In this document: in pieces, positions 6,561-31,011 of the stretch
Position numbering within the stretch: position 1 is the first letter of the stretch
Layout of the letters: every line of letters begins with the position of its first letter
NCBI GenBank assembly: GCA_030613065.1
Contig: JAUWMQ010000019.1
Span: forward strand, 1-32,185
DNA: 32,185 nt
Reading direction: 5' to 3'
From: Candidatus Aegiribacteria sp.
Lineage (GTDB): Bacteria; Fermentibacterota; Fermentibacteria; Fermentibacterales; JCC-6
The notes under the pieces: generated by a model
What the model saw: only the letters and a program-made list of their open reading frames with translations
The model's database searches: none
Told to the model about the DNA's origin: nothing
Translations under genes and position numbers: made by a program

Positions 6561-7469
6561 ATGAAGAAAATTCTAGCAGCAGTCATGCTGACAATATTAG
6601 CAGGCTCAGCATCCGCTGGTACGGCAGGTTTCGCCTTCCTGCAGGTTCCAGTCGGAGCCAGGGCTGTCGCGATGGGGGGAGCTTTCACAGGAGTTCCCGG
6701 AGATCCCATGGGGCTGTACTGGAATCCAGCAACACTTGCTGGAATGCAGGGACAGATGTTTACTTCTACATATACGGGTTATCTGATGGATATGCAGGCT
6801 GGCTTCGCGGGATGGGTAAATCCCGCTGGAAATGATCTGGTAGGAGTTTCAGTAAATTATTTTTACGGAGGCAGCTTTACAAGAACATCAATGATGAACC
6901 CAACTGGAAACGGCGAGGAATTCAGCACTAACAGCGTTTCACTCGGAGGAACCTATGTGCATAAATTCGGACAGTCCTTTGCCGTAGGAACAACTGCCAA
7001 GTTCGTCTATTCAAGCATCGATACGTATAGCGGGAATGCATTCATGGTTGATGTGGGTGCATGGTACAAACCAGCTCTTTTCTCATTCGGATTTGTAGTA
7101 AGAAACGCGGGCATTCAAACCAAGGCGTTCTACCAGGAAAACGATCCCCTTCCAACAACAGTTGCAGCGGGAGCATCGGCCGAATTTCTTGACGACAGGC
7201 TCCTGATCGCGGCGGATGTGAGCTATCCTCTTCAGGGAGATTTCGATGCGGCCCTCGGCGTTGAGTATTCCCCTATTGATATGCTTTCTTTAAGGGCGGG
7301 TGGCAATCTCCATGACAAGAACGCTGCCGATAACGCAGGCGGCAGTTTCTTTGACGCTCTGGCATTCGGTGTCGGAACCAACTGGAACAGGTTTTCCCTT
7401 GACTACGCGTACAAACCCTTCGCTGACCTGGGAACCATTCACAGATTCAGCCTTGGCATTACTCTGTGA
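6561..7469 (+). CDS. PorV/PorQ-family outer-membrane beta-barrel protein
   Basis: 302 residues. A signal peptide (MKKILAAVMLTILAGSASA) is followed by the conserved start of this family: GFAFLQVPVGARAVAMGGAF, then DPMGLYWNPA. This signature is shared by PorV and PorQ (FadL-like barrels), which work with the type IX secretion system as shuttle or accessory proteins in Bacteroidota and relatives. The C-terminus ends in alternating strand residues (HRFSLGITL). I start it at ATG 6561, with ACGGAG 7 bases upstream. An in-frame ATG at 6510 would place 17 basic residues before the signal peptide and is less likely. The T9SS-sorted protein at 23416-24819 is consistent with such a system. Confidence 0.85.
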   Translation: MKKILAAVMLTILAGSASAGTAGFAFLQVPVGARAVAMGGAFTGVPGDPMGLYWNPATLAGMQGQMFTSTYTGYLMDMQAGFAGWVNPAGNDLVGVSVNYFYGGSFTRTSMMNPTGNGEEFSTNSVSLGGTYVHKFGQSFAVGTTAKFVYSSIDTYSGNAFMVDVGAWYKPALFSFGFVVRNAGIQTKAFYQENDPLPTTVAAGASAEFLDDRLLIAADVSYPLQGDFDAALGVEYSPIDMLSLRAGGNLHDKNAADNAGGSFFDALAFGVGTNWNRFSLDYAYKPFADLGTIHRFSLGITL

Positions 7470-7813
7470 CATTCCCCACTTTCACACTTCTGTTATTACT
7501 GGGGATAGTCATGATCTCATCCTGCCACAGGGAAACCCGGCTTGAAGGAAGACAGAAAAGACTTGACACTTTCAGGACTTCCCTTCCCGATAATGTCAGA
7601 GTGGAATTTGATGCCATCTCAAGCAGAGAAGATTGCGAATACGTTGGCCTTCTGCTTGAAGAAGCCAGAAATGATTTGTGGGAAGTGAACAGTGCTTTAG
7701 ATTCTATTGTGCATGCAGAGCTGATAGACACATTTTCAAATGAGGAAATAGTCTACTATTTCTGGTATTATTTTGATTACGCCATAGAGACAGGTTCTGT
7801 AAGAGGACCCTGA
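7466..7813 (+). CDS. Small lipoprotein, unknown function
   Basis: 115 residues starting at a GTG that overlaps the previous TGA (GTGA). A hydrophobic segment (FTLLLLLGIVM) leads to the lipobox MISSC (Cys20), so the protein should be lipid anchored. The mature part is acidic and probably helical (EEARNDLWEVNSALDSIV), with a Tyr-rich stretch (EEIVYYFWYYFDYA) near the end. No family recognised. It is the last gene of the run that starts at 3251. Confidence 0.65.
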   Translation: MTFPTFTLLLLLGIVMISSCHRETRLEGRQKRLDTFRTSLPDNVRVEFDAISSREDCEYVGLLLEEARNDLWEVNSALDSIVHAELIDTFSNEEIVYYFWYYFDYAIETGSVRGP

Positions 7814-7847
7814 GGGGGGGCTCCACCTGTTAAGAAACCGGAACCAA

Positions 7848-8372
7848 TTGAATATTGACGCAATACCCGGCAGCACGATGATTCTGGGTCTTGGAAATCC
7901 GATTCTCGGTGATGATGGAATTGGCTGCTCTGTGGCTGAATTCATCGGGAAAAGACTTGGGAAAGATTCTGAAGTGACAGTGCTTTCCACTTCAGTTTCT
8001 CTAGTCAGGCTGGTGGATGAAATCTCAGGACACCATCGACTTATCATCATAGATTCTATTACGACAGGTCAGGCTGATCCGGGAGAACTACTGGAAATTG
8101 AGTTTCGGAGACAATGCCCATCCCCGGTATCCGCTCATCATTTTTCTATAGAACAACTTCAGGATATCGGCAATGCACTGGGTCTTTCAATGCCCGAATA
8201 CGTGAAGGTCTACGGGATAGAAATAATCCAGCCTGAAGTATATGAAGAAGGCCTTTCCCCTGCGCTGGAGGAACTCCTTCCTGAATTTGCTGAAGAGATT
8301 ATCAATAGAGAGCTTACCAACTGCATGGTGCACGACTCCAATACCACACCGAGAGGAGACTTGGCGGTATGA
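7848..8372 (+). CDS. [NiFe]-hydrogenase maturation endopeptidase (HycI/HyaD family)
   Basis: Protease that trims the C-terminus of a hydrogenase large subunit once nickel is inserted. 174 residues; family signature ILGLGNPILGDDGIG near residues 12-26. The expected nickel-sensing ligands are present: an acidic residue in GDDG (Asp22/23), Asp69 in IIIDS, and His97/98 in SAHHFS. The start used is TTG 7848; ATG 7878 is an alternative that would begin right at the conserved strand. Neither has a strong ribosome site. It opens the hydrogenase operon, and its natural target is the MvhA-like subunit at its end, which keeps a 26-residue tail after DPCFGCATH. It overlaps hdrC by ATGA. Confidence 0.88.
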   Translation: MNIDAIPGSTMILGLGNPILGDDGIGCSVAEFIGKRLGKDSEVTVLSTSVSLVRLVDEISGHHRLIIIDSITTGQADPGELLEIEFRRQCPSPVSAHHFSIEQLQDIGNALGLSMPEYVKVYGIEIIQPEVYEEGLSPALEELLPEFAEEIINRELTNCMVHDSNTTPRGDLAV

Positions 8373-8812
8373 GTGAAAACATGGGGCTGGCTCCCCCAAA
8401 AAGCCCTCCGATCCGGCTGACCCGGGAAGTAGTCAATTCCGGATTCAAACAGCGGGTGAATGAGTTGAGCGGACAGCATATGGATGCCTGCTATCAGTGC
8501 GGAAACTGCTCATCAGGTTGTCCCCTGGCACAGGAGATGGACATTCTCCCCAACGGAATCATCAGACTGGTTCAGCTGGGACAGAGAGATGAAGTTATCA
8601 ACAGCGAAACTTTATGGATATGCGCAAGTTGCTTCCAGTGTACAGTCAGATGCCCAAAGGGAATCGACATACAGGCAGTAATGGACGCACTAAGGCAGAT
8701 GGCGCTGGATGAGGGAGTTGACCATTTCGGCCCGGATCAGATCGATCCGGAGCAGGCGGCTCTGGTCCCTCAACCGGGGCTTGTTGGTGTTTACAGAAAA
8801 CTGTCAACCTAG
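8369..8812 (+). CDS. hdrC: Heterodisulfide reductase subunit C-like protein
   Basis: 147 residues with two ferredoxin-type [4Fe-4S] motifs: CYQCGNCSSGC (Cys41, 44, 47, 51) followed by P, and CASCFQCTVRC (Cys85, 88, 91, 95) followed by P. In HdrABC complexes this soluble subunit carries electrons from the flavin in HdrA to the catalytic HdrB. No membrane segments, so this is the cytoplasmic HdrABC form rather than HdrDE. The start ATG overlaps the protease stop. hdrB follows after 13 bases. Confidence 0.93.
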   Translation: MSENMGLAPPKSPPIRLTREVVNSGFKQRVNELSGQHMDACYQCGNCSSGCPLAQEMDILPNGIIRLVQLGQRDEVINSETLWICASCFQCTVRCPKGIDIQAVMDALRQMALDEGVDHFGPDQIDPEQAALVPQPGLVGVYRKLST

Positions 8813-8825
8813 AACTGGAGGAAAC

Positions 8826-9767
8826 ATGGCCAAGATTGCTTACTATCCGGGCTGTGCCCTTAATGAAAGGTCCTCCCATCTCGACCGCTCAGCACGGGAT
8901 GCTACCGTGAGACTTGGTTTCGAGCTGGACGAGCTGGATACATGGACCTGCTGCGGGGCGGTTCCCCCGGTATCGAAAGAAAGGGTAATGAATCTCATAG
9001 CCCCTTCCAGAATTCTGAAAAATGTACGTGATTCGGGAAGAGATATTCTTATAACAATATGCGATTTCTGCTACAACACCCTCAAGCGGACAAATTTTAG
9101 CATAAAAACCGATGATATTACCAGGAAAAGAGTGAATGCCTTCCTCGCCGATGATACACCTGAAAGGGAATATCTTGAAAAGGACGATACTCTCTGGGAG
9201 GATTACGCCGGTGAAGTCAGGGTCATTCATCTCATGGAATACCTGCGCGATGAACTGGGTTACGAAAAGATCACCGAAAATCTTAAAAGACCCCTTAAGG
9301 GGCTCAAGATAGCCCCCTACTACGGCTGCGTCATGTTGAGGCCACAGAACGAAATACAGCTGGACGATCCTGAAAATCCTTCGATCATCGAAGATTTTAT
9401 CACCGCTCTGGATGCCCAGCCAGTAAAATACCCCTACCGAACGGAATGCTGCGGTTCGTATCTGTCGGTCTCCAGCCCAGACGCTTCAACAAGGTTATGC
9501 TACAGAATACTCACTTCAGCCAGAAACAGCGGTGCGGATGCGATTGTTGTAAGCTGTCCACTCTGTTTCTATAACCTTGATTCAAGGCAGAAAGCTATAA
9601 CCGAAGCCTATTCCGATTTCAAGCCTCTTCCGATATTCTATTTCACTCAGCTTCTCTCTGTTGCGCTTGGTGTTGAATATGGAAGGCAGGGGTTTGAAAA
9701 ACACTATGTAGATGTTACCCCTGTTCTGGATAAGATCGACATCAGTACCGGAAAGGGGGATGAGTAA
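8826..9767 (+). CDS. hdrB: Heterodisulfide reductase subunit B-like protein, two CCG domains
   Basis: 313 residues starting at ATG 8826, with GGAGGAAAC just before it. It has two complete CCG (DUF224) motifs: Cys10, Cys42-Cys43, Cys79, Cys82, and Cys168, Cys208-Cys209, Cys244, Cys247. In methanogen HdrB these hold two noncubane [4Fe-4S] clusters that cleave the CoM-S-S-CoB disulfide. Both sets are intact here, so disulfide-type chemistry, or transfer of electrons through those clusters, remains possible. A bacterium is not expected to make CoM/CoB, so the true acceptor is unknown. Its stop overlaps the hdrA start. Confidence 0.93.
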   Translation: MAKIAYYPGCALNERSSHLDRSARDATVRLGFELDELDTWTCCGAVPPVSKERVMNLIAPSRILKNVRDSGRDILITICDFCYNTLKRTNFSIKTDDITRKRVNAFLADDTPEREYLEKDDTLWEDYAGEVRVIHLMEYLRDELGYEKITENLKRPLKGLKIAPYYGCVMLRPQNEIQLDDPENPSIIEDFITALDAQPVKYPYRTECCGSYLSVSSPDASTRLCYRILTSARNSGADAIVVSCPLCFYNLDSRQKAITEAYSDFKPLPIFYFTQLLSVALGVEYGRQGFEKHYVDVTPVLDKIDISTGKGDE

Positions 9768-11722
9768 TGAAAAGGATAGGAGTCTTCGTATGCCACTGTG
9801 GCATCAATATCGCTATGACAGTCGACGTTAAGCGTGTGGCCGAAGAAGCGATGAATATGCCGGGGGTAGCGTACGCCCAGGATTATATTTACATGTGCTC
9901 GGAGCCGGGGCAAGCCCTTGTCCGGGAAAAGATAAAGGAAGAAGAGCTGGATGCTGTTATCATCGCTGCCTGCTCCCCCAATCTTCATGAATCCACTTTC
10001 AGAGCAGCCGCAGAGGAGGCAGGACTCAATCCATGGCAGTGCGAAATCGCTAATATCCGCGAACAGTGCAGCTGGGTTCACACAAATAGAGAAAAGGCGA
10101 CCAGCAAGGCAATAAGAATTGTCGATACATTAGTTCAGAAGACAATACTGAACGAGTCACTCGAACCGATTCCGGTATCAATCACAAAAAAGGCTCTTGT
10201 GATCGGAGGAGGGATCGCCGGTATCCAGGCTGCCCTTGATATCGCTGACTCAGGCTACAAGATTATCCTTGTAGAAAAGGAATCATCCATCGGCGGGCAT
10301 ATGGCCCAGCTTTCTGAAACATTCCCCACACTGGACTGCTCACAGTGTATTCTCACGCCAAAGATGGTTGCTGCTGGAAAACATCCGAACATCGAACTGA
10401 TGACCTATTCCGAAATCGAAGAGGTTTCCGGATATGTTGGCAATTTCAATGTCAAGATAAAACGGAAAGCTTCCTTCGTAGACTGGTCCAAATGTAACGG
10501 CTGCGGTCTCTGCATGGAAAAATGTCCCGCAAAAGTTCCCTCCCTCTTTGACAGGGAGCTTGCAACGCACGGGGCTATCTACGTTCCATTTCCCCAGGCG
10601 GTCCCGAACAAACCGGTAATCGATAAGGACAATTGTATCTACTTCAAATCAGGAAAATGCCGTTTGTGCGAAAAGGTATGCGAGATAGGTGCTATAAACT
10701 TCGAGCAGGAAGATCTGATCGTTGAAGAAGAAATAGGAGCCATCATAGTCGCAACCGGTTTCGAAACCCTTCCTGTTCCCAACCTGGTCGAATACGGCGC
10801 AGGTGATGTTCCCGATGTCATTGACGGACTAGCTTTCGAACGCCTTCTATCAGCATCAGGTCCAACCGTAGGAGAGGTAAGGAGACCCTCTGACGGCATG
10901 GTTCCTAAGGAGATTGTTTTCGTTCAGTGCGCGGGTTCAAGGGACCCTGAGCGGTACAGACCCTACTGCTCCAAGATCTGCTGTATGTATACGACGAAGC
11001 ATGCCCTGCTGTACAAGCACCGTGTTCATGATGGCCAGCCCTACATCTTCTATATAGACATCAGGACAGGTGGAAAAGGCTACGAGGAATTCTACCATAA
11101 CGCCGAGCTGGATGAGGGGATCATCTATCTCCGGGGCAAGGTTGCGAAAATATTCCGTGACGGTGACAAAACGGTGGTATGGGGAACAGACACCCTTACC
11201 GGCAGGAACATCGAAATAGCGGCCGATCTTGTTGTCCTTGCCACTGCGATGATTCCGAAGGACAGCACGGCCGAGCTTGTAAAGAAACTCAGAATACAAA
11301 CAGGACCCAACGGTTTCCTCTCCGAGGCCCATCCGAAGCTGCGTCCGGTGGAAAGCATCAACAGTGGTTTCTACATAGCCGGAGCTGCCCAGGGGCCGAA
11401 GGACATACCGGAAACGGTCGCCCAGGCCAGCGCTGCCGCGTGTAAGGTGATATCCCTCTTCTCAAGGGATCATCTGGAGCAGGATCCCGCAATCGCCTGG
11501 GTTGATGAAGACCTCTGCGGCAACTGCCGGATCTGCATTTCAGTGTGCCCATACGATGCCCGTGAATTTGATGAAGAGAAGGGCATAGTGATTGTCAATG
11601 AGGCTCTCTGCGAAGGTTGTGGCTCCTGCGTGGCCGCATGTGCCTGCGGAGCGACTCAGCAGAGGAATCTGTCTGATTCCCAGATAAGATCCATGGTTAC
11701 CGCCAGTTTGGGAGGTGAGTAA
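9767..11722 (+). CDS. hdrA: Heterodisulfide reductase subunit A-like protein (electron-bifurcating flavoprotein)
   Basis: 651 residues. Order: an N-terminal domain with Cys9/Cys11 (GVFVCHCG), Cys44, Cys69, Cys92 and Cys101; a thioredoxin-reductase-like FAD domain with VIGGGIAGIQ at 145-154 and ESSIGGHMAQ; [4Fe-4S] motifs at Cys243-253 (CNGCGLCMEKC) and Cys290-305; and a C-terminal ferredoxin pair CGNCRICISVC and CEGCGSCVAAC. In MvhADG-HdrABC the HdrA FAD is the site of flavin-based bifurcation, splitting electron pairs between ferredoxin and the HdrB side. The length matches stand-alone HdrA, with no MvhD or FrhB fusion. It overlaps both neighbours by one base. Confidence 0.94.
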   Translation: MKRIGVFVCHCGINIAMTVDVKRVAEEAMNMPGVAYAQDYIYMCSEPGQALVREKIKEEELDAVIIAACSPNLHESTFRAAAEEAGLNPWQCEIANIREQCSWVHTNREKATSKAIRIVDTLVQKTILNESLEPIPVSITKKALVIGGGIAGIQAALDIADSGYKIILVEKESSIGGHMAQLSETFPTLDCSQCILTPKMVAAGKHPNIELMTYSEIEEVSGYVGNFNVKIKRKASFVDWSKCNGCGLCMEKCPAKVPSLFDRELATHGAIYVPFPQAVPNKPVIDKDNCIYFKSGKCRLCEKVCEIGAINFEQEDLIVEEEIGAIIVATGFETLPVPNLVEYGAGDVPDVIDGLAFERLLSASGPTVGEVRRPSDGMVPKEIVFVQCAGSRDPERYRPYCSKICCMYTTKHALLYKHRVHDGQPYIFYIDIRTGGKGYEEFYHNAELDEGIIYLRGKVAKIFRDGDKTVVWGTDTLTGRNIEIAADLVVLATAMIPKDSTAELVKKLRIQTGPNGFLSEAHPKLRPVESINSGFYIAGAAQGPKDIPETVAQASAAACKVISLFSRDHLEQDPAIAWVDEDLCGNCRICISVCPYDAREFDEEKGIVIVNEALCEGCGSCVAACACGATQQRNLSDSQIRSMVTASLGGE

Positions 11723-12141
11723 TGTTTGAGCCCAAGATAGTCTGCTTTTTATGCAAATGGTGTACCAGTGCAGGCGCGGACCTGGCAGGCACTTCCCGGC
11801 TGAAGTACAGGCCCAATGGAGTTAACATAAAATTCATGTGTTCAAGCAGGGTTGATCCGGAGCACATTCTCTGGGCATTCCATGAGGGTGCTGACGGAGT
11901 TCTCATCGGAGGATGCCATCCTGGAGACTGCCATTACGAGGATGGCAATTACAAAACACAGGCTCGCGTATCCCTCCTGAATCGCCTGCTGGATGATCTC
12001 GGGATAGATACCCGGCGCCTTCGCCTGGATTGGATCTCGGCTGCGGAGGGATCAAAATTCGCAAATGTTATGAATGAATTCACAGAGGAGCTGCGTTCAT
12101 TAGGACCGATAAAGCTTGCTGCAAGGGAGATGGCAAAATGA
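11722..12141 (+). CDS. mvhD: MvhD-like subunit (hydrogenase delta, [2Fe-2S] electron link)
   Basis: 139 residues. It matches MvhD/FrhD-family proteins: an N-terminal KIVCFLCKWC (Cys8, 11, 14), MCSSRVDP (Cys40), and IGGCHPGDCHYEDGNY (Cys65, Cys70). In methanogens MvhD carries a [2Fe-2S] cluster and bridges the hydrogenase MvhAG to HdrA. It starts after GGAGG with a one-base overlap with hdrA, and its stop overlaps the next ATG (ATGA). Its presence supports physical coupling of the hydrogenase to the Hdr module. Confidence 0.93.
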   Translation: MFEPKIVCFLCKWCTSAGADLAGTSRLKYRPNGVNIKFMCSSRVDPEHILWAFHEGADGVLIGGCHPGDCHYEDGNYKTQARVSLLNRLLDDLGIDTRRLRLDWISAAEGSKFANVMNEFTEELRSLGPIKLAAREMAK

Positions 12142-12881
12142 CAGAACCGTCTGAAACGACCGGGGACTTGCTGGTTCCCATTTTCTTCATGGGGAAAAGG
12201 TACAATGTGCCAGCCAGTCTGACAATTCAGAAAGCATTGGAATACGCCGGTTATCAGCATATCAGGGGGTGCGGTTGCCGTGGAGGAGTATGCGGTGCCT
12301 GCGGTACCGTTTACAGAATACCTGACAGCTATAAACTTCAGGTGGGACTGGCATGCCAGACTGTTGTGCAGTCCGGAATGCACCTGATGATAATGCCCTA
12401 CTATCCAGGGAACAGGTCTATCTTTGATATAGAGAAGATGTCCGGAACCGGCGGTGAAATTGCCGCCCTTTATCCAGAGATATACAAATGCATCGGATGC
12501 AATGCATGCAGCCAGGGCTGCCCGATGGACATAGATGTAATGCACTATATGGCTCAAGCTATAAGAGGTGATGTGCCGGGAGTTGCCGAAACATCCTTCG
12601 ACTGCATAATGTGCGGCCTGTGTGCCTCCAGGTGCCCGGCGGAAGAAGTACAGTTCAATGTAGCAATCCTCGCAAGAAGGTTGAATGCAAGACACAGAAT
12701 CCCCAGGGCAAAACACCTGGAAGAAAGAGTTAAAGAGGTCACTGACGGGAAATTCGAGCAACCTCTGAGGGATCTGATGAGTAGATCAACTGAAGAACTG
12801 AAGGAGTTGTACAGATCCCGGGAATCGGAGCCTCAGATGACAGAGGACGACTGGGTGCCTCTGAACGCGAGGTATGTCTGA
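12138..12881 (+). CDS. Fumarate reductase/succinate dehydrogenase-like iron-sulfur subunit
   Basis: 247 residues. The N-terminal plant-type ferredoxin domain has a [2Fe-2S] motif (Cys47, Cys52, Cys55, Cys73; local CGCRGGVCGAC). The C-terminal domain has two [4Fe-4S] motifs (Cys118, 121, 124, 128 and Cys156, 159, 162, 166). SdhB/FrdB usually has one [2Fe-2S], one [4Fe-4S] and one [3Fe-4S]; here both C-terminal sets look like full four-cysteine motifs, closer to TfrB of Methanothermobacter thiol:fumarate reductase. It lacks the HdrB-like CCG tail of TfrB, since HdrB is a separate gene here. A helical tail follows residue 180. It overlaps mvhD and precedes the flavoprotein. Confidence 0.88.
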   Translation: MTEPSETTGDLLVPIFFMGKRYNVPASLTIQKALEYAGYQHIRGCGCRGGVCGACGTVYRIPDSYKLQVGLACQTVVQSGMHLMIMPYYPGNRSIFDIEKMSGTGGEIAALYPEIYKCIGCNACSQGCPMDIDVMHYMAQAIRGDVPGVAETSFDCIMCGLCASRCPAEEVQFNVAILARRLNARHRIPRAKHLEERVKEVTDGKFEQPLRDLMSRSTEELKELYRSRESEPQMTEDDWVPLNARYV

Positions 12882-12911
12882 TGAGAATAAAAATTGGACT
12901 GGAGGTCGGCA

Positions 12912-14591
12912 ATGCCGTATCCTGAACCACTGAAAAAGCTTATAGAGAAAGTAGAGGCCACCCGCCCGGCGAGGGTGGAGAGAAAATTGAAAGAGGAAGA
13001 ATTCCCTCCCCTCAAACTTGAGGAGCGGGATCCTGTTCTCAGGAATTTCCATCCGGATTTTATCGAAGGAACGCGCCGTGAGATCAAAGTCGGTCCCAGT
13101 AAAGGTTACGCTATCAGTAATGAAATAGTTGACCTCCTTGAAGCCAGAAGCAGAGTGAATCCTTATCTGGTCAGCCTTTCCAAACCGGATTACGAAACTG
13201 ACGTCCTTGTAATCGGCGCAGGTGGAGCCGGAACAGCGGCTGCCATTCTTGCGGCTGAAAACGGGGCGAAAGTATTGATCGCGACAAAACTGCGCCATGG
13301 TGATGCGAATACAATGATGGCCGAGGGGGGCATTCAGGCAGCTGATAAAGTTGGAAAGGATTCGCCCTATTACCATTACCTGGACATTCTTGGAGGCGGA
13401 CATTTCCTGAATGATCCAGAGCTTGTATACACAATGGTCCAGAATGCACCGGACGCTGTAAAATGGCTCGAAGGGCTGGGAACATCATTCTCCAAGTTCG
13501 AAGACGGCAGAATGAAGACGATGCACGGTGGGGGAACATGCCGTAAAAGGATGCATTACGCCGCTGATATCACCGGCGCTGAAATCATGAAAACCATTCG
13601 TGATGAAGCCAGAAATCACACGGATATGATCGAAGTGATTGAGTTCTGCCCCGCGGTTGAACTGGTCCTTGATGATAATGGGCGCTGCGCAGGCGCTGTT
13701 CTCTACAACCTGGAGACAGCGGAGTACCATTATGTAAAAGCAAAAGCTGTTATCATCGCAACCGGTGGAAGCGGAAGGCTGCATATACAGAATTTCATGA
13801 CAACCAACCATTACGGTGCCACCGCGGATGGCATTGTTATGGCTTATAGAGCCGGAGTTCCTATCTCCTTCCTTCATACTGTGCAGTATCACCCCACAGG
13901 TGTAGTTTTCCCGGAACAGGCCGAGGGGATTCTGATAACTGAAAAATTCCGCGGTGCTGGCGCGAATGTACTTAATATCCATGGTGAGCAGTTCGTCTAC
14001 GAGCGTGAGCCGAGGGATGTTGAGGCGGCCTGCATTATCCGCGAATGCAGCCCGAAAGGAAGAGGCAACGGGGTTCCTACTCCCACTGGGAAATTCGGTG
14101 TATGGCTCGATTCTCCCATGATCGAACTGCTCAAGGGTGAAGGGACTGTAAGGAAGGAATTCCCCGGCAAGCACATTCTTTTCAGACGGTTCGGAATCGA
14201 TATATCTAAAGAGCCTATGCTCATTCACCCGACGCTTCATTACCAGAATGGCGGATTGGACATTAACAGCAAATGTGAGACGAATGTACCCGGTCTGTAC
14301 GCTGCGGGTGAAGTTTCCGGCGGAGTTCATGGCGAAAACAGGCTGATGGGGAATTCTCTGCTGGATGTTATCGTGTTCGGCAGAATAGCCGGTGAGCAGG
14401 CCGCTGAGTACGCGAGTAAGCATACTGAAAGTGGTTACGCAAATCTTGATCATGTGAAACGCTACAATGAAGAATTGGAAACCGCAGGAATAGAGGGAGA
14501 GAGAATAGCACCCATGATACTGCCGGATTACAGCAATCCCGAGGTCAGGGAAAAACAGCTTACAAAGGATTACTTCGGAACCCTGTCCTGA
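12912..14591 (+). CDS. Fumarate reductase/succinate dehydrogenase-like flavoprotein subunit
   Basis: 559 residues from ATG 12912, with GGAGG 6 bases upstream. FAD-binding GAGGAG is at 102-107, and the active-site residues of fumarate reductases are all present: His327 (QYHPTG), Glu344 (TEKFRG), Arg368 (PRD, proton donor equivalent), His443 (HYQNGG) and Arg477 (GENRLMGNSLLD). Three features are unusual. About 95 residues precede the FAD fold, where FrdA normally has only a few. The covalent-FAD His of FrdA is Asn133 (NTMMAEGG), predicting non-covalent FAD. Only about 60 residues follow the conserved FGRIAGEQAAEYA, so most of the usual C-terminal helical domain is missing. No membrane anchor gene is present. 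It probably reduces fumarate, with the iron-sulfur subunit as donor. Confidence 0.9.
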   Translation: MPYPEPLKKLIEKVEATRPARVERKLKEEEFPPLKLEERDPVLRNFHPDFIEGTRREIKVGPSKGYAISNEIVDLLEARSRVNPYLVSLSKPDYETDVLVIGAGGAGTAAAILAAENGAKVLIATKLRHGDANTMMAEGGIQAADKVGKDSPYYHYLDILGGGHFLNDPELVYTMVQNAPDAVKWLEGLGTSFSKFEDGRMKTMHGGGTCRKRMHYAADITGAEIMKTIRDEARNHTDMIEVIEFCPAVELVLDDNGRCAGAVLYNLETAEYHYVKAKAVIIATGGSGRLHIQNFMTTNHYGATADGIVMAYRAGVPISFLHTVQYHPTGVVFPEQAEGILITEKFRGAGANVLNIHGEQFVYEREPRDVEAACIIRECSPKGRGNGVPTPTGKFGVWLDSPMIELLKGEGTVRKEFPGKHILFRRFGIDISKEPMLIHPTLHYQNGGLDINSKCETNVPGLYAAGEVSGGVHGENRLMGNSLLDVIVFGRIAGEQAAEYASKHTESGYANLDHVKRYNEELETAGIEGERIAPMILPDYSNPEVREKQLTKDYFGTLS

Positions 14592-14610
14592 TAAGGGAGG
14601 AGGAAAGTAC

Positions 14611-15582
14611 ATGAGCAAACCGAAAGTAGCCCTTTACTGGGCTGCCAGCTGTGGCGGATGTGAGATAGCCGTTCTTGATATAGGCGACAGAATCCTTGCT
14701 CTTTCCGAAGCTGTGGAGATCGTTTTCTGGCCCTGTGCCATCGATATCAAATACGATGATGTCAGAGCCATGGAAGATGGCGAGATAGATCTGTGCCTGT
14801 TCAACGGAGCCATCAGGAATTCGGAGAACGAGGAGATGGCGAAACTTCTCAGGCGGAAATCGAAACTTCTGGTGGCTTACGGCTCATGCGCCTATGAGGG
14901 GTGCATACCTGGACTTGCCAATCTGAAAACCCGCAAGGAAATCCTCAGGCGCAGCTACATTGAAGTACCTTCAATGGACAATCCTGAGGGTATCTACCCC
15001 CAGACCAGAACTGAAGTACCAGAAGGTGTACTGGTACTTCCGGAACTCTACGATACCGTATACACACTGGATCAGGTTGTGGATGTGGATTACTACGTTC
15101 CCGGCTGCCCTCCAGTTGCGGATCAGACCTGGGCTGTCCTGGAAGCTGTGCTTGAAGGCAATCTTCCTGAAAAGGGCAGTGTTGTTGGCGCGGGAATGAA
15201 GATTGTGTGCGATGACTGCCCGCTGGAAAAAAAGGAAACAAAAATATCCCAATTTTTCAGGCCCCACCAGATCATACCTGAGCCGGACAGGTGCCTGCTT
15301 GAGCAAGGCATATACTGCGCGGGAATAGCAACACGTACGGGCTGTGAAGCTCTCTGCCCCACTGTTGGAATGCCGTGCAGAGGGTGCTACGGACCCCCAC
15401 CCGGAGTATTGGACCAGGGCGCGAAAATAGTAAGTGCCCTCGGTTCAGTTATAGACTCCGAAGATCCTGATGAAGTTGACAGGATAATGGAACAGATCCC
15501 CTGTCCCGCAGGCCTCTTCTACCGTTTCAGCCTGCCGCATTCAATACTCCGGAGGAAGACTACAGATGACTACAAAGATTAG
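14611..15582 (+). CDS. mvhG: F420-non-reducing-type [NiFe]-hydrogenase small subunit (group 3c)
   Basis: 323 residues with a strong GGGAGGAGG ribosome site. The proximal cluster ligands are Cys14 and Cys17 (AASCGGCE), Cys93 (YGSCAYEGC) and Cys166 (VPGCPP). A second Cys-rich part near residues 205-275 (CDDCPLE, GCEALCPT, PCRGCYGPP) holds the medial and distal clusters. No twin-arginine signal, so the enzyme is cytoplasmic. It relays electrons from the NiFe site to MvhD. It overlaps mvhA by 17 bases. Confidence 0.94.
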   Translation: MSKPKVALYWAASCGGCEIAVLDIGDRILALSEAVEIVFWPCAIDIKYDDVRAMEDGEIDLCLFNGAIRNSENEEMAKLLRRKSKLLVAYGSCAYEGCIPGLANLKTRKEILRRSYIEVPSMDNPEGIYPQTRTEVPEGVLVLPELYDTVYTLDQVVDVDYYVPGCPPVADQTWAVLEAVLEGNLPEKGSVVGAGMKIVCDDCPLEKKETKISQFFRPHQIIPEPDRCLLEQGIYCAGIATRTGCEALCPTVGMPCRGCYGPPPGVLDQGAKIVSALGSVIDSEDPDEVDRIMEQIPCPAGLFYRFSLPHSILRRKTTDDYKD

Positions 15583-17029
15583 TATTGACCCAATCACCCG
15601 CCTTGAGGGTCACGGGAAGGTAGAGATATTTCTCGACGATGCGGGTAATGTGGAAAATGTCTATTTCCAGGTTCCGGAACTCAGGGGATTCGAAACATTC
15701 TGTGAGGGGCACCCTGTGGAGGAACTGGCTAGAATAACTACCAGAATATGCGGTGTCTGCCCTGAAGCTCACCACATGGCTTCTGCAAAGGCTGCGGATG
15801 CTGTTTACGGAGTGGAAATACCATCAGCTGCAAAAAAACTGAGGGAACTGCTCTACAGCGCATTCTACGTAACTGATCATGCAACTCATTTCTACATTCT
15901 TGGAGGACCTGATTTCATTGTCGGTCCTGATTCAGACCCGAAGGTCAGGAATATCCTCGGCGTCATTGCAAAAGTGGGTAGGGAAACCGGCCTCAGGGTG
16001 ATCAATACAAGACACAGATGCCATCAGGTTATCAAGACTCTTGGTGGAAAGACCATACATCCGGTTTCATCAATCCCGGGTGGAGTCTCGAAGGGGCTCA
16101 ACGAGGAGGAACGAAAGGAAATCGAGGGTGTGGCCCGTGATGCTGTTGAGTTCGGTAAGTTCAGCCTGAAAGTTTTCGAAGACATTGTACTGGCAAACAA
16201 GCAGTATGTGGACTTGATCCTGAACGAGGGATACTCACATAACACCTACAACATGGGAACCGTCGATGAGAACAACCACATCAACTTCTACGAAGGTATG
16301 GTGAGGGTAACGGACCAGGACGGCAATGAATTCGCGAAATTCAACCCTGACGACTACCTGGATCATATAGCGGAAAGAGTTGAACCCTGGACATACCTGA
16401 AATTCCCCTATCTGAAGAAGGTCGGCTGGAAGGGATTCGTTGACGGCAAGGAGAGCGGTGTATACAAGGCCACTCCTCTTTCCAGGTGCAACGCTGCAGA
16501 TGGTATGGCCACCCCGCTGGCACAGGAACAGTACGAGAAGATGTACGATACTCTGGGGGGGAACCCGGTGAACGCGACTCTGGCCACACACTGGGCCCGT
16601 CTTGTGGAGCTCCAGTACGCGGCTGAACGTATGCTCGAGCTGGCAACCGATCCTGAGATAACCTCTGACAACATAAGGACAATACCAACGAAGACACCGT
16701 CAGAGGGTGTGGGTCAGGTTGAAGCCCCAAGAGGAACACTTTTTCATCACTACATTACGGATGAGAACGGTATCGTCAAAAAAGTCAACCTCATAGTGGG
16801 AACCACGAACAACAACGCGGCCATCTGCATGTCACTCAAGAAAGCAGCGCAGACTGTAATAAAGGACGGTAATATAGGACAGGGACTTCTGAACCTGGTG
16901 GAAATGGGATTCAGGGCATACGACCCCTGTTTCGGATGCGCAACGCATTCTCTTCCAGGCTCAATGCCGTTAATAATAAATGTCCATGGCAGAAATGGTG
17001 ATATTCTGGAACGGGTAAGAAGGGACTGA
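15566..17029 (+). CDS. mvhA: F420-non-reducing-type [NiFe]-hydrogenase large subunit (group 3c)
   Basis: 487 residues, catalytic subunit that splits or makes H2. The N-terminal NiFe ligands are in RICGVCPEAHH (Cys62, Cys65) and the C-terminal ligands in DPCFGCATH (Cys455, Cys458, His461). The 26 residues after His461 should be removed by the maturation protease encoded at the start of the operon. The N-terminus (SIDPITRLEGHG) is standard. Starts after GGAGGA inside mvhG. Together with mvhD and hdrABC it defines an MvhADG-HdrABC type complex. A hairpin follows the stop. Confidence 0.95.
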   Translation: MTTKISIDPITRLEGHGKVEIFLDDAGNVENVYFQVPELRGFETFCEGHPVEELARITTRICGVCPEAHHMASAKAADAVYGVEIPSAAKKLRELLYSAFYVTDHATHFYILGGPDFIVGPDSDPKVRNILGVIAKVGRETGLRVINTRHRCHQVIKTLGGKTIHPVSSIPGGVSKGLNEEERKEIEGVARDAVEFGKFSLKVFEDIVLANKQYVDLILNEGYSHNTYNMGTVDENNHINFYEGMVRVTDQDGNEFAKFNPDDYLDHIAERVEPWTYLKFPYLKKVGWKGFVDGKESGVYKATPLSRCNAADGMATPLAQEQYEKMYDTLGGNPVNATLATHWARLVELQYAAERMLELATDPEITSDNIRTIPTKTPSEGVGQVEAPRGTLFHHYITDENGIVKKVNLIVGTTNNNAAICMSLKKAAQTVIKDGNIGQGLLNLVEMGFRAYDPCFGCATHSLPGSMPLIINVHGRNGDILERVRRD

Positions 17030-17035
17030 AATCAC

Positions 17036-17062
17036 GGGACACGCGCCGCCGATGAGTGTCCC
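17036..17062 (+). terminator. Hairpin after the hydrogenase operon
   Basis: Inverted repeat GGGACAC / GTGTCCC with a 13-base loop, starting 6 bases after the mvhA stop and followed by a pyrimidine-rich tract with few T residues. It is probably the operon terminator, though the tail is atypical. Confidence 0.5.
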
Positions 17063-17077
17063 TCCTCCCTTCCGCCC

Positions 17078-17105
17078 TTGACAGTCGCGGCTTCTTTCCT
17101 ATAAT
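17078..17105 (+). promoter_or_regulatory. Consensus sigma-70 promoter of the initiator tRNA
   Basis: Perfect TTGACA (17078-17083) and TATAAT (17100-17105) with a 16-base spacer. Transcription would start about 6 bases before the tRNA. This is the strongest promoter match in the window, as expected for a stable RNA gene. Confidence 0.92.
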
Positions 17106-17117
17106 GCGCCTTGCAGT

Positions 17118-17194
<77 letters not shown>

Positions 17195-17199
17195 AAACG

Positions 17200-17230
17200 A
17201 ACCCGGCTTAACGGCCGGGTTCTGCTATTC
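17200..17230 (+). terminator. Terminator of the tRNA-fMet gene
   Basis: Perfect 8-bp stem AACCCGGC / GCCGGGTT with a 6-base loop (17200-17207, 17214-17221) and a short T-containing tail, 5 bases after the CCA. Confidence 0.8.
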
Positions 17231-17259
17231 CAGGACAGGGACTGTGTTTCCCGACCCCG

Positions 17260-18447
17260 TTACAACCAGTCCTCCACCAGAAACTCAGGTAAATATGCAT
17301 GTCTGATGCCGCCTCTCGATGGGAAATCCCTGTCCATGGAAAGAACGATCTTTTGATAATTGTCCCGGATGGATTCAAGTACTGAAAACTCTCGCTCTAT
17401 CGTATCGGGCGATGAAAGATGGAAAGCTACCTGGACATAAACTGTCTCATCCCCCTTCTCAGCGATAAAATCGATCTCTCTGTTTCCGGATTCTCCAACT
17501 AAGACGGTATAATCCCTGCGCATAAGTTCCAGGCAGACGATGTTCTCTAGAAAGCCGGAGATGGCTCCATCCCTGAAACCGAATAATGCATGCCTGAACG
17601 AAAGGTCACTCAGGTATGCCTTCTCAGTGTAGGAGAGCAATTTCTTTCCCCGAATATCGAATCTTTTCAAATTGTAGATCGCATAAGCGTCAGCCAGATT
17701 TCGGATGTAGTCAATGACTGTACCTGCCGTTGTGTTCCTACCGTGGGATCTCATGTAATCAGCGATACTCTTCCCCGAGTGTAGTGAACCCACATTGTCC
17801 GCCAGGAACGAAAACACGGATTCCAGCAGCGGTATGCTGCGGATACTGTTCCTCATTATTACATCATTGAGGATCACGGTGTCCATGACAGAGCCGAGAT
17901 ACTGGTAGACCACCTCTGTCGTGAGTTGCATGGAATGAATCCCCGGCATACCACCCAACCGGAGGAAGAGTCCGAATTCCTTCGGGAGAGATCCCGAGTC
18001 CTCTCCGCGGAACTGCACAAATTCCGCCAGGCCAAGTGGATAGATATGCAGCTCAACGTACCTCCCGGATATAGAAGATGCAAGCTCGGAAGCGAGCATT
18101 CCGGCATTCGAACCCGAGATGTAGATGTCTATTCCGCCTTCGGCGAGTAGAGATGCAACAAACTCTTCCCATCCTCTGATATCCTGCACCTCATCAATAA
18201 GAAGGGCCGATAATTCAGTGAACTCTTTTATGTAGCGATAGAGAGCATCCATATCTCTGAATCGGTGATTTTCGATCAGCTCCATGTTCAGATACAGGGG
18301 GTTTCCACCGCGTGCCTGGATTAGATCAGTTACTTGCTTGAGGAATACGCTCTTTCCCACACGCCTCATGCCTGTGATCACTTTTATTAACGGAGCGTCG
18401 ATGAAGGGTTCGATTCGTTTTAGATATATTCTTCTTTTATAATACAA
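17260..18447 (-). CDS. DUF4143-type AAA ATPase
   Basis: 395 residues starting at TTG (TTGTATTATAAA) with GGAGG 7 bases upstream. Walker A GMRRVGKS is at 26-33 and Walker B LLIDEVQD (Asp85, Glu86) follows, as in AAA_14 ATPases. The C-terminal DUF4143 domain has the ESGNREIDFIAEK motif and then VYVQVAF, resembling the core of PD-(D/E)XK nucleases (E-x-D ... Q-V). The biological role of this common, horizontally scattered family is not settled. It converges on the tRNA and belongs to the repeat-scarred stretch. A second, only distantly similar member lies at 21497-22666. Confidence 0.87.
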   Translation of the reverse strand: MYYKRRIYLKRIEPFIDAPLIKVITGMRRVGKSVFLKQVTDLIQARGGNPLYLNMELIENHRFRDMDALYRYIKEFTELSALLIDEVQDIRGWEEFVASLLAEGGIDIYISGSNAGMLASELASSISGRYVELHIYPLGLAEFVQFRGEDSGSLPKEFGLFLRLGGMPGIHSMQLTTEVVYQYLGSVMDTVILNDVIMRNSIRSIPLLESVFSFLADNVGSLHSGKSIADYMRSHGRNTTAGTVIDYIRNLADAYAIYNLKRFDIRGKKLLSYTEKAYLSDLSFRHALFGFRDGAISGFLENIVCLELMRRDYTVLVGESGNREIDFIAEKGDETVYVQVAFHLSSPDTIEREFSVLESIRDNYQKIVLSMDRDFPSRGGIRHAYLPEFLVEDWL

Positions 18448-26280: not shown

Positions 26281-27057
26281 TTAATCCCTATGATGTGGTT
26301 CCGAATGTGGAACCAGAGAATGGGGTTTTTCGAAACCGTGAGAATTCATAAGTGATTCGTTACCCATTATCTCCCTGGAGAAGCCATCGGCGCATATTCT
26401 GCCATTATCAAGCAATGCCGTTCTTTCACAGGTTTCCAGCAGGAACTCGAGATCATGTGAAGCGATCAGCAGAGTTTCTCCTGAATTTTTGAGAAACTCT
26501 ATCAGCTGCCTTCTTGCCCTGCTGTCAAGACTGGACTCCGGCTCGTCAAGCAAAACAACAGTCGGGTTCATGATCATTACCCCTGCAATCGAGATCATTC
26601 TTTTTTCTCCCCCCGATAGGTTGTGGGGAGGTCTTTCCGCCAGATCAGACATCTCCATTCGGGTCAGGTATGCATCTATCATTGAACCAGCTTCCTCTTT
26701 GGAATAACCGAGATTAAGAAGGCCAAAAGCCAGGTCGTCCCTGACAGTCGGACAAAACAGTTGATCATCAGGGTTCTGAAAGACAAAGCCAAGATTGCCG
26801 TTGAAACTTCCGGTTTCCACGCGAGAATCAAGAACAGCCACAGAACCTGAATCAGGCGCGAGTATTCCTGCAAGAAGCAGAAACAGTGTAGTTTTACCCG
26901 ACCCGTTGGGGCCGATTATTCCAACCTTTTCACCTGGCATTACTTCTAGATCAACACCTTTGAGAACAGGCTCCTGCCGGGGGAAGGTAAATTTCAGATT
27001 CTTTCCGATTACATGAGTACCGGTCTGCATAGATATTCTTGATTTACGATGTTTCAA
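26281..27057 (-). CDS. ECF-type nickel/cobalt transporter ATPase (NikO/CbiO)
   Basis: ATP-hydrolysing subunit of a nickel or cobalt uptake ECF transporter. 258 residues: Walker A GPNGSGKTT (49-57), Q-loop FQNPDDQLF, signature LSGGEKR, Walker B VVLLDEPES, and the H-loop SHDLEF. FQNPDDQ is typical of the CbiO/EcfA group. The start used is TTG 27057 with GGAG 7 bases upstream; ATG 27030 is possible. It overlaps the T-subunit gene by 14 bases. Confidence 0.92.
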   Translation of the reverse strand: MKHRKSRISMQTGTHVIGKNLKFTFPRQEPVLKGVDLEVMPGEKVGIIGPNGSGKTTLFLLLAGILAPDSGSVAVLDSRVETGSFNGNLGFVFQNPDDQLFCPTVRDDLAFGLLNLGYSKEEAGSMIDAYLTRMEMSDLAERPPHNLSGGEKRMISIAGVMIMNPTVVLLDEPESSLDSRARRQLIEFLKNSGETLLIASHDLEFLLETCERTALLDNGRICADGFSREIMGNESLMNSHGFEKPHSLVPHSEPHHRD

Positions 27058-27814
27058 CAGCGATCTCCAGAACTATCAGAAGTACAGATGCGGTTACAAT
27101 CGCAAGAAAGATGATAACGTCGGACCTGGAGAGCCTTGTCAGAACATAACTTCTGTCTTCGTCGGCTGCGCTGCTTCCATAACCTCTCATTCGCATCGCG
27201 TTGAAAACTCTCTCGGACTGTTGAAAACCATTTATCAGCAATGTTGCTGCCGTTGGAACAATAACTCCAAATCTTCGAGCGATACTTTTCCCCGGTGTAT
27301 AACCCCTCAGTTTTCTGGCGGTTGTCATCTTACTGTAATCTTCTCCTATGACCATTATGTACCTGCCGGTCATAATACCGATATCAACAATAATATGGGG
27401 AATCAGCATCCCTTTCAGTTTTCCTGACAAATCGGAAAGAGGCGTTGTGGTAATCATAACTATTCCCACGGTAATAATGCTCAAAACCCGCACACATGTA
27501 TTCAATGCAAGAATGGCTCCCTGGGATCTCAGGATAACGGGACCTATTCTGAAAAGAGCCTGACCTTCTGAAAAGAGTATCAGGAATACGCTGACGAACA
27601 GAAGAAAGCTAACCGGAGCGCGAAATCTTGACAGAAGCAGCGACAGAGGAACTCCTGAAGCAATGAACAGAATGGCGGCGATGCATGGCAACATGAATAT
27701 CAGGTGCTGATCCCTGATGAAAGCCATAGCCATCATGAGCAGAAACAGACCGGGAATTTTCAGGGTGGTTTCCCAGTTTTCGAACACTCTCATTCGGTGG
27801 TTTTGAAGCGACAC
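27044..27814 (-). CDS. ECF transporter transmembrane subunit (NikQ/CbiQ)
   Basis: 256 residues, GTG start, about five to six membrane spans. The two Ala-x-x-x-Arg-Gly coupling motifs of EcfT proteins are present: ARKLRGY and AMRMRGYG in the cytoplasmic part, which grip the ATPases. It follows the M gene by one base and overlaps the ATPase gene. Confidence 0.9.
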   Translation of the reverse strand: MSLQNHRMRVFENWETTLKIPGLFLLMMAMAFIRDQHLIFMLPCIAAILFIASGVPLSLLLSRFRAPVSFLLFVSVFLILFSEGQALFRIGPVILRSQGAILALNTCVRVLSIITVGIVMITTTPLSDLSGKLKGMLIPHIIVDIGIMTGRYIMVIGEDYSKMTTARKLRGYTPGKSIARRFGVIVPTAATLLINGFQQSERVFNAMRMRGYGSSAADEDRSYVLTRLSRSDVIIFLAIVTASVLLIVLEIAVETS

Positions 27815-27815
27815 G

Positions 27816-28445: not shown

Positions 28446-28902
28446 TATACTTTTCTCGTTTTGATGCGAAGAAGAATGCGGTTCCAATAAAGCCCCATAC
28501 AATACAGACCGACATAAGTACTATCTGAAGAGTGGATAATCCACACTGTTCAGTATCGGTCGCGGAATCTTCAGCAAGAGATATATGCACGATATCTCCG
28601 TGTCCGGCTTTGCGGACTTGCACATCCCAGTTCAGCGATTCCTCTTTGTCGGGCATGAATGAGAATTCTCCGGAATCGTCAGTCATTCCGATAAGGTACG
28701 GTACTGATGGGGCAGCTTCTGAGAATACAGTGACCTGTGCTCCGTTCATAGGCTGCCCGTCATCAAATGATGCCGAGATATATACAGAATCACTCAGTAC
28801 TTCCCAGGTCACCCGTGCTCCATGTCCGAAGAGAGGAGCAGTAATCAAAAAGAGAACTGCTGTAAACAGAAAGCCCTTTACTGTATTATCGTGCAATAAC
28901 AA
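28432..28902 (-). CDS. NikL-like accessory component of the nickel transporter
   Basis: About 156 residues. A signal peptide ends at TAPLFG, leaving a mature protein that starts HGARVTWEV; an N-terminal His after processing is typical of NikK/NikL-type components. The middle is an Ig-like domain (MNGAQVTVFSEA, MTDDSGEFSF) as in the periplasmic parts of those proteins, and one C-terminal membrane span (LQIVLMSVCIVWGFIG) anchors it. No CbiN-like gene is present, so the set resembles NikMLQO. The start is uncertain: TTG 28902 or 28896, both after GGGAGAAGG; a TTG at 28932 is less likely. Confidence 0.72.
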   Translation of the reverse strand: MLLHDNTVKGFLFTAVLFLITAPLFGHGARVTWEVLSDSVYISASFDDGQPMNGAQVTVFSEAAPSVPYLIGMTDDSGEFSFMPDKEESLNWDVQVRKAGHGDIVHISLAEDSATDTEQCGLSTLQIVLMSVCIVWGFIGTAFFFASKREKYNAHT

Positions 28903-30997: not shown

Positions 30998-31011
30998 TTC
31001 GACTCCTTTGA

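What the first reader, a model, noticed from the sequence alone, without database searches (positions are those of the whole stretch)
7848..17029. Hydrogenase, heterodisulfide reductase and soluble fumarate reductase in one bacterial operon
Nine overlapping or closely spaced genes encode a maturation protease, HdrCBA, MvhD, FrdB-like and FrdA-like subunits, MvhG and MvhA. MvhADG-HdrABC is the known bifurcating complex of methanogens. Here its usual disulfide acceptor is not expected in a bacterium, and a fumarate reductase with all catalytic residues but no membrane anchor sits in the middle of the operon. I infer a cytoplasmic complex coupling H2 oxidation to fumarate reduction (strongly downhill) and to ferredoxin reduction (uphill), or the reverse. 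Thiol:fumarate reductase (TfrAB) of Methanothermobacter is the nearest known precedent, but it is not linked to hydrogenase in one unit. I do not recall a described enzyme of this composition.
Basis: partly seen in the sequence, partly recalled or inferred. Interest (0 to 1): 0.85.

Follow-up and report, generated by a model that had tools for sequence, protein, structure and literature searches.

The report
Hydrogen-linked membrane-free fumarate reductase operon
A bacterium from a poorly known phylum carries one operon joining a hydrogenase, an electron-splitting module and a soluble fumarate reductase, which probably lets the cell reduce fumarate with hydrogen while charging ferredoxin; similar gene clusters have been reported in other bacteria, and the mechanism is still untested.

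Summary
In detail: a nine-gene operon (hydrogenase protease, hdrCBA, mvhD, frdB, frdA, mvhG, mvhA) lies at 7848-17029 of a Fermentibacteria MAG. FrdA has the fumarate-reductase catalytic residues, conserved in 80 relatives, but the covalent-FAD histidine is Asn in all 80; FrdB keeps every cluster cysteine plus one that predicts a second cubane instead of 3Fe-4S. By published precedent this favours fumarate reduction over succinate oxidation. Neither of two membrane-anchor models finds a hit in the genome. Across phyla FrdBA travels with HdrB and HdrC (58 and 55 of 60 loci), with HdrA in 33 and MvhA in 8. Some Fermentibacteria lack mvhGA and keep only a stub of mvhD beside intact hdrCBA-frdBA. 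Fumarase, succinyl-CoA synthetase or 2-oxoacid oxidoreductase genes flank the unit in a minority of relatives. Best reading: a cytoplasmic HdrABC-FrdAB fumarate reductase with a detachable H2 input, bifurcating electrons to fumarate and ferredoxin. Complex formation and bifurcation are inferred. Related clusters (Flx-Hdr-FR, Flx-Hdr-TfrAB, Mvh-Hdr-TFR) are in print: a new variant of a known kind.

The parts
7848..8372 (+). hydrogenase maturation protease (HycI/HyaD type)
   Evidence: PF01750 26 bits, TIGR00072 87 bits, both over cut-off; MvhA has a 26-residue tail after the L2 motif
8369..8812 (+). HdrC, two CxxCxxCxxxCP motifs
8826..9767 (+). HdrB, two CCG (non-cubane 4Fe-4S) motifs
   Evidence: PF02754 in two stretches, TIGR03288 177 bits; motif spacings 31/35 and 39/34; PDB 8rvu chain b E=1.4e-42
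9767..11722 (+). HdrA, flavin (proposed bifurcating) subunit
   Evidence: NF040770 787 bits; PDB 8rvu and 5odc HdrA, E<1e-200
11722..12141 (+). MvhD, hydrogenase-to-HdrA linker
   Evidence: PF02662 171 bits
12138..12881 (+). FrdB-like subunit: plant-type 2Fe-2S and two 4Fe-4S motifs, no CCG domain
   Evidence: all 11 E. coli FrdB cysteines aligned plus a Cys at the Val207 position in 74 of 74; hhalign to E. coli FrdB/SdhB prob 95.7
12912..14591 (+). FrdA-like flavoprotein (ATG start; an in-frame TTG lies at 12894)
   Evidence: PF00890 266 bits; TfrA model NF004900 342 bits, below its cut-off 718; catalytic residues in the 80 relatives
14611..15582 (+). MvhG, hydrogenase small subunit
   Evidence: PF01058 82 bits; NF045875 227 bits, below its cut-off 450
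15566..17029 (+). MvhA, Vhu/Mvh-like [NiFe] large subunit with L1 RICGVCPEAH and L2 DPCFGCATH
   Evidence: NF041785 410 bits, below its cut-off 800; motifs
17118..17194 (+). tRNA-Met after the operon; it directly follows frdA in L009 and L022, where mvhGA is absent

Best explanation
The operon encodes a cytoplasmic fumarate reductase of HdrABC-FrdAB type fed by an MvhADG hydrogenase. Proposed path: H2 is oxidised at MvhA; electrons pass MvhG and MvhD to the FAD of HdrA, which splits them. The high-potential branch runs HdrC, HdrB, FrdB, FrdA to fumarate; the low-potential branch reduces ferredoxin: 2 H2 + fumarate + Fd(ox) gives succinate + Fd(red). Shown here: gene identities, catalytic residues, cluster motifs, the FrdAB-HdrBC association across phyla, fumarate/succinate genes beside the unit in a minority of relatives, and genomes that lack the hydrogenase genes but keep the rest. 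Inferred: physical complex, HdrB-to-FrdB transfer, bifurcation, use of H2 in vivo, direction toward succinate.
For: Catalytic and substrate residues in 80 of 80 relatives (one Thr to Ser). FrdB within 400 bases of FrdA in 75 of 75 loci with enough upstream DNA; HdrB in 58 and HdrC in 55 of 60. Neighbours: fumarase subunits around the unit in four of 11 Chloroflexota loci (L073, L079, L085 both sides, L086 one side), sucC-sucD behind frdA in L023, L025, L036, L047 and sucC in L058; 2-oxoacid:acceptor oxidoreductase genes behind frdA in L034 and L049, with sucD and a fumarase subunit further on in L049. L049 carries the whole mvhGA-hdrCBA-mvhD-frdBA set in another order. HdrA and HdrB match solved methanogen complexes. 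Own genome: no hit to two anchor models; the only other long FAD_binding_2 protein pairs with L-aspartate oxidase; sucC, a gene read by eye as sucD, and fumarase side by side on C61; methylmalonyl-CoA mutase present. Non-covalent FAD fits fumarate reduction. The coupled reaction stays downhill at 1 Pa H2, -12.6 kJ at Fd -500 mV and equal fumarate and succinate.
Against: No biochemical data; no complex could be modelled, and both single-chain models are mediocre (pLDDT 69 and 66). HdrB keeps both CCG sites, so it could still reduce a disulfide. 24 of 60 loci have HdrC-HdrB-FrdB-FrdA with no HdrA found within 9 kb upstream, and two (L024, L058) have no Hdr gene there at all, so bifurcation cannot be a property of the whole family. 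Five Fermentibacteria genomes have FrdA but no close MvhA, so H2 is not always the donor. Only about 12 of 80 loci show fumarate/succinate neighbours. The 80 loci are the best of 262 hits, so counts describe near relatives only. In the tree the family stands apart from E. coli FrdA/SdhA as well as from NadB, so its substrate rests on residues and neighbours.
Confidence: 0.6

Rival explanations
1. Non-bifurcating: H2 electrons pass through HdrABC to FrdAB and reduce fumarate, with no net ferredoxin reduction; a plain electron sink in succinate/propionate fermentation.
For: H2 to fumarate alone is -86 kJ at 1 bar H2. Fumarase, sucC and methylmalonyl-CoA mutase are in the genome.
Against: HdrA is full-length with the C-terminal 4Fe-4S motifs and its matches among solved structures are the methanogen HdrABC complexes. 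2-oxoacid:acceptor oxidoreductase genes, whose products normally use ferredoxin (recalled), sit behind frdA in L034 and L049.
Confidence: 0.15
2. Two enzymes share an operon: Mvh-HdrABC reduces a protein or small disulfide (DsrC or other), and the thiol product feeds FrdAB, as in thiol:fumarate reductase.
For: HdrB has both CCG motifs. A DsrC with two C-terminal cysteines is in the genome. TfrAB of methanogens uses thiols (recalled; cited in PMC6315080). A DsrC-like carrier is one option in the model discussed for Endoriftia (PMC11636981, passages).
Against: DsrC lies beside a different Hdr cluster on C33, not here. FrdB lacks the fused HdrB domain of TfrB, while separate HdrB and HdrC genes accompany it in 58 and 55 of 60 loci.
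Confidence: 0.17
3. The complex runs backwards: succinate and reduced ferredoxin are oxidised to fumarate and H2 (confurcation), as a syntrophic H2 producer.
For: Fermentibacteria are described as H2 and acetate producers (PMC5763382, passages). MvhADG-HdrABC is reversible in principle (recalled).
Against: Covalent-FAD His is Asn in 80 of 80; characterised enzymes with non-covalent FAD lacked succinate oxidation (PMC2680327, passages).
Confidence: 0.06

Closest known systems
Flx-Hdr plus fumarate reductase 'succinate operon' of Pseudoclostridium thermosuccinogenes (PMC7282089, passages; the 2019 preprint it cites was not available)
   Same: fumarate reductase genes in one operon with Hdr genes; link to ferredoxin reduction proposed
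   Different: input is NADH through Flx, not H2 through Mvh; whether its FrdA is of the same clade was not tested here
TFR-OGOR-fumarase-SCS-Mvh-Hdr cluster of Ca. Celaenobacter, Cloacimonadota (PMC8542988, section 9)
   Same: Mvh group 3c, Hdr and a soluble fumarate reductase in one cluster; L049 here has a similar set
   Different: read as rTCA carbon fixation driven by H2; the paper says 'functional link' and does not name fumarate as the bifurcation acceptor; sequences not compared here
tfrAB and korABCD interspersed with flxABCD-hdrABC in tubeworm symbionts and Thioflavicoccus (PMC6315080, passages)
   Same: soluble fumarate reductase integrated with an Hdr complex; direct electron delivery suggested
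   Different: Flx input; annotated as TfrAB
Thiol:fumarate reductase TfrAB (Heim 1998, recalled; cited in papers seen)
   Same: TfrA is the best-scoring NCBIfam model for this FrdA
   Different: TfrB is one protein with FrdB-like and HdrB-like parts (recalled, and as the model matches suggest); here they are separate genes, and the TfrA score is below the cut-off
E-type SdhABE / 8-methylmenaquinol:fumarate reductase of Wolinella and Campylobacter (PMC2680327, abstract and passages)
   Same: non-covalent FAD, second 4Fe-4S instead of 3Fe-4S, an Hdr-related third subunit
   Different: quinol-linked and exported by the Tat pathway; here an MvhADG-HdrA input
MvhADG-HdrABC of methanogens (solved complexes 5odc, 8rvu)
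   Same: HdrA and HdrB match them; the hydrogenase subunits match the Vhu models
   Different: fumarate reductase subunits added; the heterodisulfide is not expected in a bacterium
MetVF-MvhD-HdrABC of Moorella (described in PMC7325909, passages)
   Same: Hdr-MvhD module coupled to another reductase in a bacterium
   Different: methylene-THF instead of fumarate

Membership tests
MvhADG-HdrABC bifurcating complex | six subunits with motifs: HdrA flavin domain and 4Fe-4S, HdrB two CCG, HdrC two 4Fe-4S, MvhD, MvhG, [NiFe] L1/L2 | tested here: met
MvhADG-HdrABC bifurcating complex | curated CoB-CoM Hdr / Vhu model cut-offs | tested here: not met
   TIGR03288 177 of 345, NF040770 787 of 1100, NF041785 410 of 800 bits
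MvhADG-HdrABC bifurcating complex | H2-dependent ferredoxin reduction coupled to an acceptor | not testable with these tools
   needs purified enzyme
Complex II flavoprotein (FrdA/SdhA) | dicarboxylate-binding and proton-donor residues (His232, Thr244, Glu245, Arg248, Arg287, His355, Arg390 of E. coli FrdA; numbering and roles recalled) | tested here: met
   80 of 80 relatives, except Thr in 79 and Ser in 1; the same residues are in NadB
Complex II flavoprotein (FrdA/SdhA) | covalent-FAD histidine | tested here: not met
   Asn in 80 of 80
Membrane quinol:fumarate reductase | membrane anchor subunit | tested here: not met
   no PF01127 and no TIGR02046 hit in own genome; PF02300 and PF02313 not run; genome 92.7% complete
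FrdB/SdhB iron-sulfur subunit | 2Fe-2S and two further cluster motifs | tested here: met
   11 of 11 E. coli FrdB cysteines aligned in 74 of 74; the third motif has an extra Cys
TfrAB | TfrA model cut-off | tested here: not met
   342 of 718 bits
TfrAB | TfrB with fused HdrB-like CCG domain | tested here: not met
   FrdB 247 aa without CCG; HdrB is a separate gene
TfrAB | thiols (CoM-SH, CoB-SH) as donor | not testable with these tools
   biochemistry
E-type SdhABE (MFR) | no covalent-FAD His, and second 4Fe-4S motif | tested here: met
   against PMC2680327
E-type SdhABE (MFR) | SdhE and SdhA model cut-offs | tested here: not met
   NF042965 137 of 500 (HdrB), NF042982 248 of 1100 bits (FrdA)
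Flx-Hdr fumarate reductase of P. thermosuccinogenes | FrdA of the same clade | not tested
   its sequence was not fetched

The most novel reading that the evidence does not exclude
HdrBC-FrdAB is a distinct, widespread and uncharacterised class of soluble fumarate reductase in which HdrB hands electrons straight to FrdB, so that fumarate takes the place of the heterodisulfide as the high-potential acceptor; the electron input (Mvh with HdrA, doubled HdrA with MvhD and an Fe-S protein, two HdrA, or none in the cluster) is swapped between lineages. In Fermentibacteria the input is H2, making an H2:fumarate,ferredoxin oxidoreductase.
Probability: 0.45. Interest if true: 0.8.

Novelty: new variant of a known kind. 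Interest (0 to 1): 0.58.

Why it matters
If right, fumarate reduction, normally a membrane process with quinones, can be run in the cytoplasm and its energy captured as reduced ferredoxin. That would tell how anoxic lineages without an anchored enzyme gain from fumarate, and how a reductive TCA route could get both succinate and low-potential electrons for the next carboxylation from one complex. The natural relatives without mvhGA give a ready comparison for testing whether H2 is the true donor.

Tried and rejected
Fold comparison of FrdB: model pLDDT 69; no PDB match at E 0.001 or better, the best at 2.1e-3 to complex I subunits; not decisive. A sequence profile of FrdB finds ferredoxin-type proteins first; FrdB/SdhB chains come lower, and only over the 4Fe-4S part. 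FrdA model pLDDT 66 with the stretch 127-221 under 50; its best PDB match is E. coli FrdA, with TM-scores of only about 0.46. L-aspartate oxidase as identity of FrdA: not favoured, because NadB models score lower than TfrA and FrdA/SdhA models (285 against 342 and 304 bits) and because of the FrdB/Hdr partners; the tree cannot decide, since the family is far from both outgroup pairs. Terminator-like patterns: 21 found against 9.8 expected in the stretch 7400-17300, both strands; none of those on the + strand was followed up. Exact phrases such as 'bifurcating fumarate reductase' returned no paper; other literature searches. Opened without use in the argument: PMC8671834, PMC12542636, PMC6129605, PMC10439189. 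The library holds open-licence PMC papers only. The Ca. Fermentibacter genome paper (Kirkegaard 2016) was not read.

Limits: the 80 loci are the best of 262. Eight FrdA match sequences hold a stop, six at the upstream edge and two near the C-terminal end. Cluster counts use tblastn at 1e-6 within 9 kb on the same strand; in loci with several Hdr clusters a hit may belong to another cluster, and the MvhD count includes the stub in L009. The tree is a quick search without bootstrap. Phylum names come from record labels of MAGs.
Full report
What is there. The window is a whole contig (G000:C74; length 32185) of a 2.81 Mb MAG, 92.7% complete. Its closest relatives are records labelled Candidatus Aegiribacteria, Fermentibacteria or Fermentibacteraceae, 85-91% identical in FrdA. 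The nine genes lie at 7848-17029 on the + strand with 1-17 base overlaps or gaps of up to about 30 bases. FrdA's better start is ATG 12912 behind GGAGG. MvhA has the L1 and L2 nickel motifs and a 26-residue tail; HdrB has two CCG motifs; HdrC has two and HdrA three 4Fe-4S motifs. HdrA and HdrB match solved methanogen Hdr complexes.

The fumarate reductase. FrdA was aligned with E. coli FrdA, SdhA and NadB. Seven substrate or proton-transfer positions are the same in 80 of 80 relatives except one Thr to Ser; NadB has the same seven. The covalent-FAD His is Asn in all 80. In Wolinella SdhABE, and in E. coli and yeast variants, non-covalent FAD goes with loss or lack of succinate oxidation, though restoring the bond in Wolinella did not restore it (PMC2680327, passages). 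I therefore predict fumarate reduction as the working direction. Pfam finds no PF02910 domain. FrdB has all 11 E. coli FrdB cluster cysteines and an extra cysteine where E. coli has Val207, in 74 of 74 relatives. This predicts a second 4Fe-4S in place of the 3Fe-4S, the E-type pattern described in the same paper. A profile comparison with E. coli FrdB and SdhB gives probability 95.7.

Is there another fumarate reductase or an anchor? The only other long FAD_binding_2 protein of the genome (C153) pairs with E. coli NadB in the tree. No Sdh_cyt (PF01127) or b558 (TIGR02046) anchor is found. One class I fumarase subunit, sucC and a gene read by eye as sucD are neighbours on contig C61, and methylmalonyl-CoA mutase is on C7. 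A route from fumarate through succinate to propionyl-CoA is plausible.

Neighbourhood across bacteria. Of 262 confirmed hits the best 80 were kept; their records carry eleven phylum names and some candidate divisions. FrdB lies within 400 bases upstream of FrdA in 75 of 75 loci with at least 0.8 kb upstream. Of 60 loci with at least 6 kb upstream, HdrB is found in 58, HdrC in 55, HdrA in 33, MvhD in 28 (one a stub), MvhA in 8 and MvhG in 7. 24 of the 60 have HdrC-HdrB-FrdB-FrdA and no HdrA; two, L024 and L058, have no Hdr gene. So the conserved unit is HdrBC-FrdAB, and the hydrogenase is one of several inputs. Neighbours that name the substrate are present in about 12 of 80 loci: fumarase subunits before and behind the unit in L073, L079 and L085 and before it in L086, four of 11 Chloroflexota loci; sucC and sucD behind frdA in L023, L025, L036 and L047, and sucC in L058; fumarase genes on the opposite strand downstream in L021 (families checked on L073 and L025, on L049). 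Behind frdA in L034 and L049 lie 2-oxoacid:acceptor oxidoreductase genes (NF006412 over its cut-off; models specific to 2-oxoglutarate below theirs), with sucD and a fumarase subunit further on in L049. L049 has MvhG-MvhA in front of HdrC-HdrB-HdrA-MvhD-FrdB-FrdA, the same eight genes in another order. L034 has the end of a MvhA at the edge of the fetched stretch, three other open frames before HdrC, and MvhG outside what was fetched.

Relatives without the hydrogenase. In 42 genomes of the phylum, FrdA is in 20. MvhA lies beside it in 11 of the 20 (G000, G007, G008, G009, G013, G014, G015, G018, G019, G020, G025). In G041 a MvhA is on the same contig 20 kb away, on the other strand. Three cannot be judged: G010 and, if it is the genome of L014 as the coordinates suggest, G024 end near FrdA, and G006 has a FrdA fragment with MvhA on another contig. 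G011, G012, G016, G017 and G022 have no close MvhA although their contigs go on. L009 and L022 (by coordinates the genomes G017 and G016) and L014 show how: mvhD is reduced to an open frame of 37-51 residues holding its C-terminus between hdrA and frdB. In L009 and L022 a tRNA-Met follows frdA directly; in the window, L012 and L017 the tRNA-Met follows mvhA instead. No protease is found in L009 and L022. On the FrdA tree this state needs at least two changes, with a quick tree without bootstrap. Reading: MvhADG and its protease form one removable unit; HdrABC-FrdAB is kept without it.

How it most likely works. H2 to MvhA, MvhG, MvhD and the HdrA flavin; from there one path through HdrC, HdrB, FrdB and FrdA to fumarate and the other to ferredoxin. 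At E0' +33 mV for fumarate (value in PMC5861303, passages) the coupled reaction is -69.7 kJ at 1 bar H2 and -12.6 kJ at 1 Pa with ferredoxin at -500 mV (H2 and ferredoxin potentials recalled, equal fumarate and succinate assumed). The complex, the HdrB-FrdB contact and the bifurcation are inferred. Single-chain models were mediocre and no complex could be predicted.

What is known. Fumarate reductase genes with Hdr complexes are in print: the P. thermosuccinogenes succinate operon with Flx-Hdr (PMC7282089, passages), tubeworm symbionts and Thioflavicoccus with Flx-Hdr, tfrAB and korABCD (PMC6315080, passages; PMC11636981, passages), Ca. Celaenobacter with Mvh, Hdr, TFR, OGOR, fumarase and SCS (PMC8542988, section 9), and Culexarchaeia clusters with SdhA and Hdr (PMC9723716, passages). 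I saw no report of this operon for Fermentibacteria (listings; PMC5763382 and PMC7382037 searched by terms) and no purified enzyme of this kind in the listings. What is added here: the residue-level case for direction, the split of the system into an HdrBC-FrdAB core and exchangeable inputs with counts, and the relatives that lack the hydrogenase. Verdict: a real and well-founded observation, a new variant of a proposed kind, biochemically untested.

Noticed in passing
window 26281-28502 (-) and 30563-31033 (-): An ECF-type cobalt/nickel uptake system (CbiM, CbiQ, ATPase) and a Fur-family regulator lie on the same contig as the [NiFe] hydrogenase; a role in nickel supply is a guess.
   Followed up: partly
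G000:C33 (L099) 9038-17406: A second Hdr cluster with a doubled HdrA, MvhD, Flx-like genes and HdrC-HdrB (genes read by eye), beside a DsrC with two C-terminal cysteines.
   Followed up: partly
G000 contigs C155, C35, C120: Three further HdrA-containing contigs in the same genome: a bacterium rich in Hdr genes.
   Followed up: no
L009 8093-8248, L022 8126-8239, L014 2228-2356: Short open frame left of mvhD that still overlaps the frdB start, possibly kept for translational coupling.
   Followed up: partly
L023 6931-8118 and its cluster c6, 17 loci in all: Conserved Fe-S protein of about 382 aa, between mvhD and frdB in most of these loci; no Pfam match at 1e-8 and no NCBIfam match at 1e-20; perhaps the electron input there.
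   Followed up: no
window 17078-17105: Perfect 12 of 12 sigma-70 type promoter match just before the tRNA-Met.
   Followed up: no
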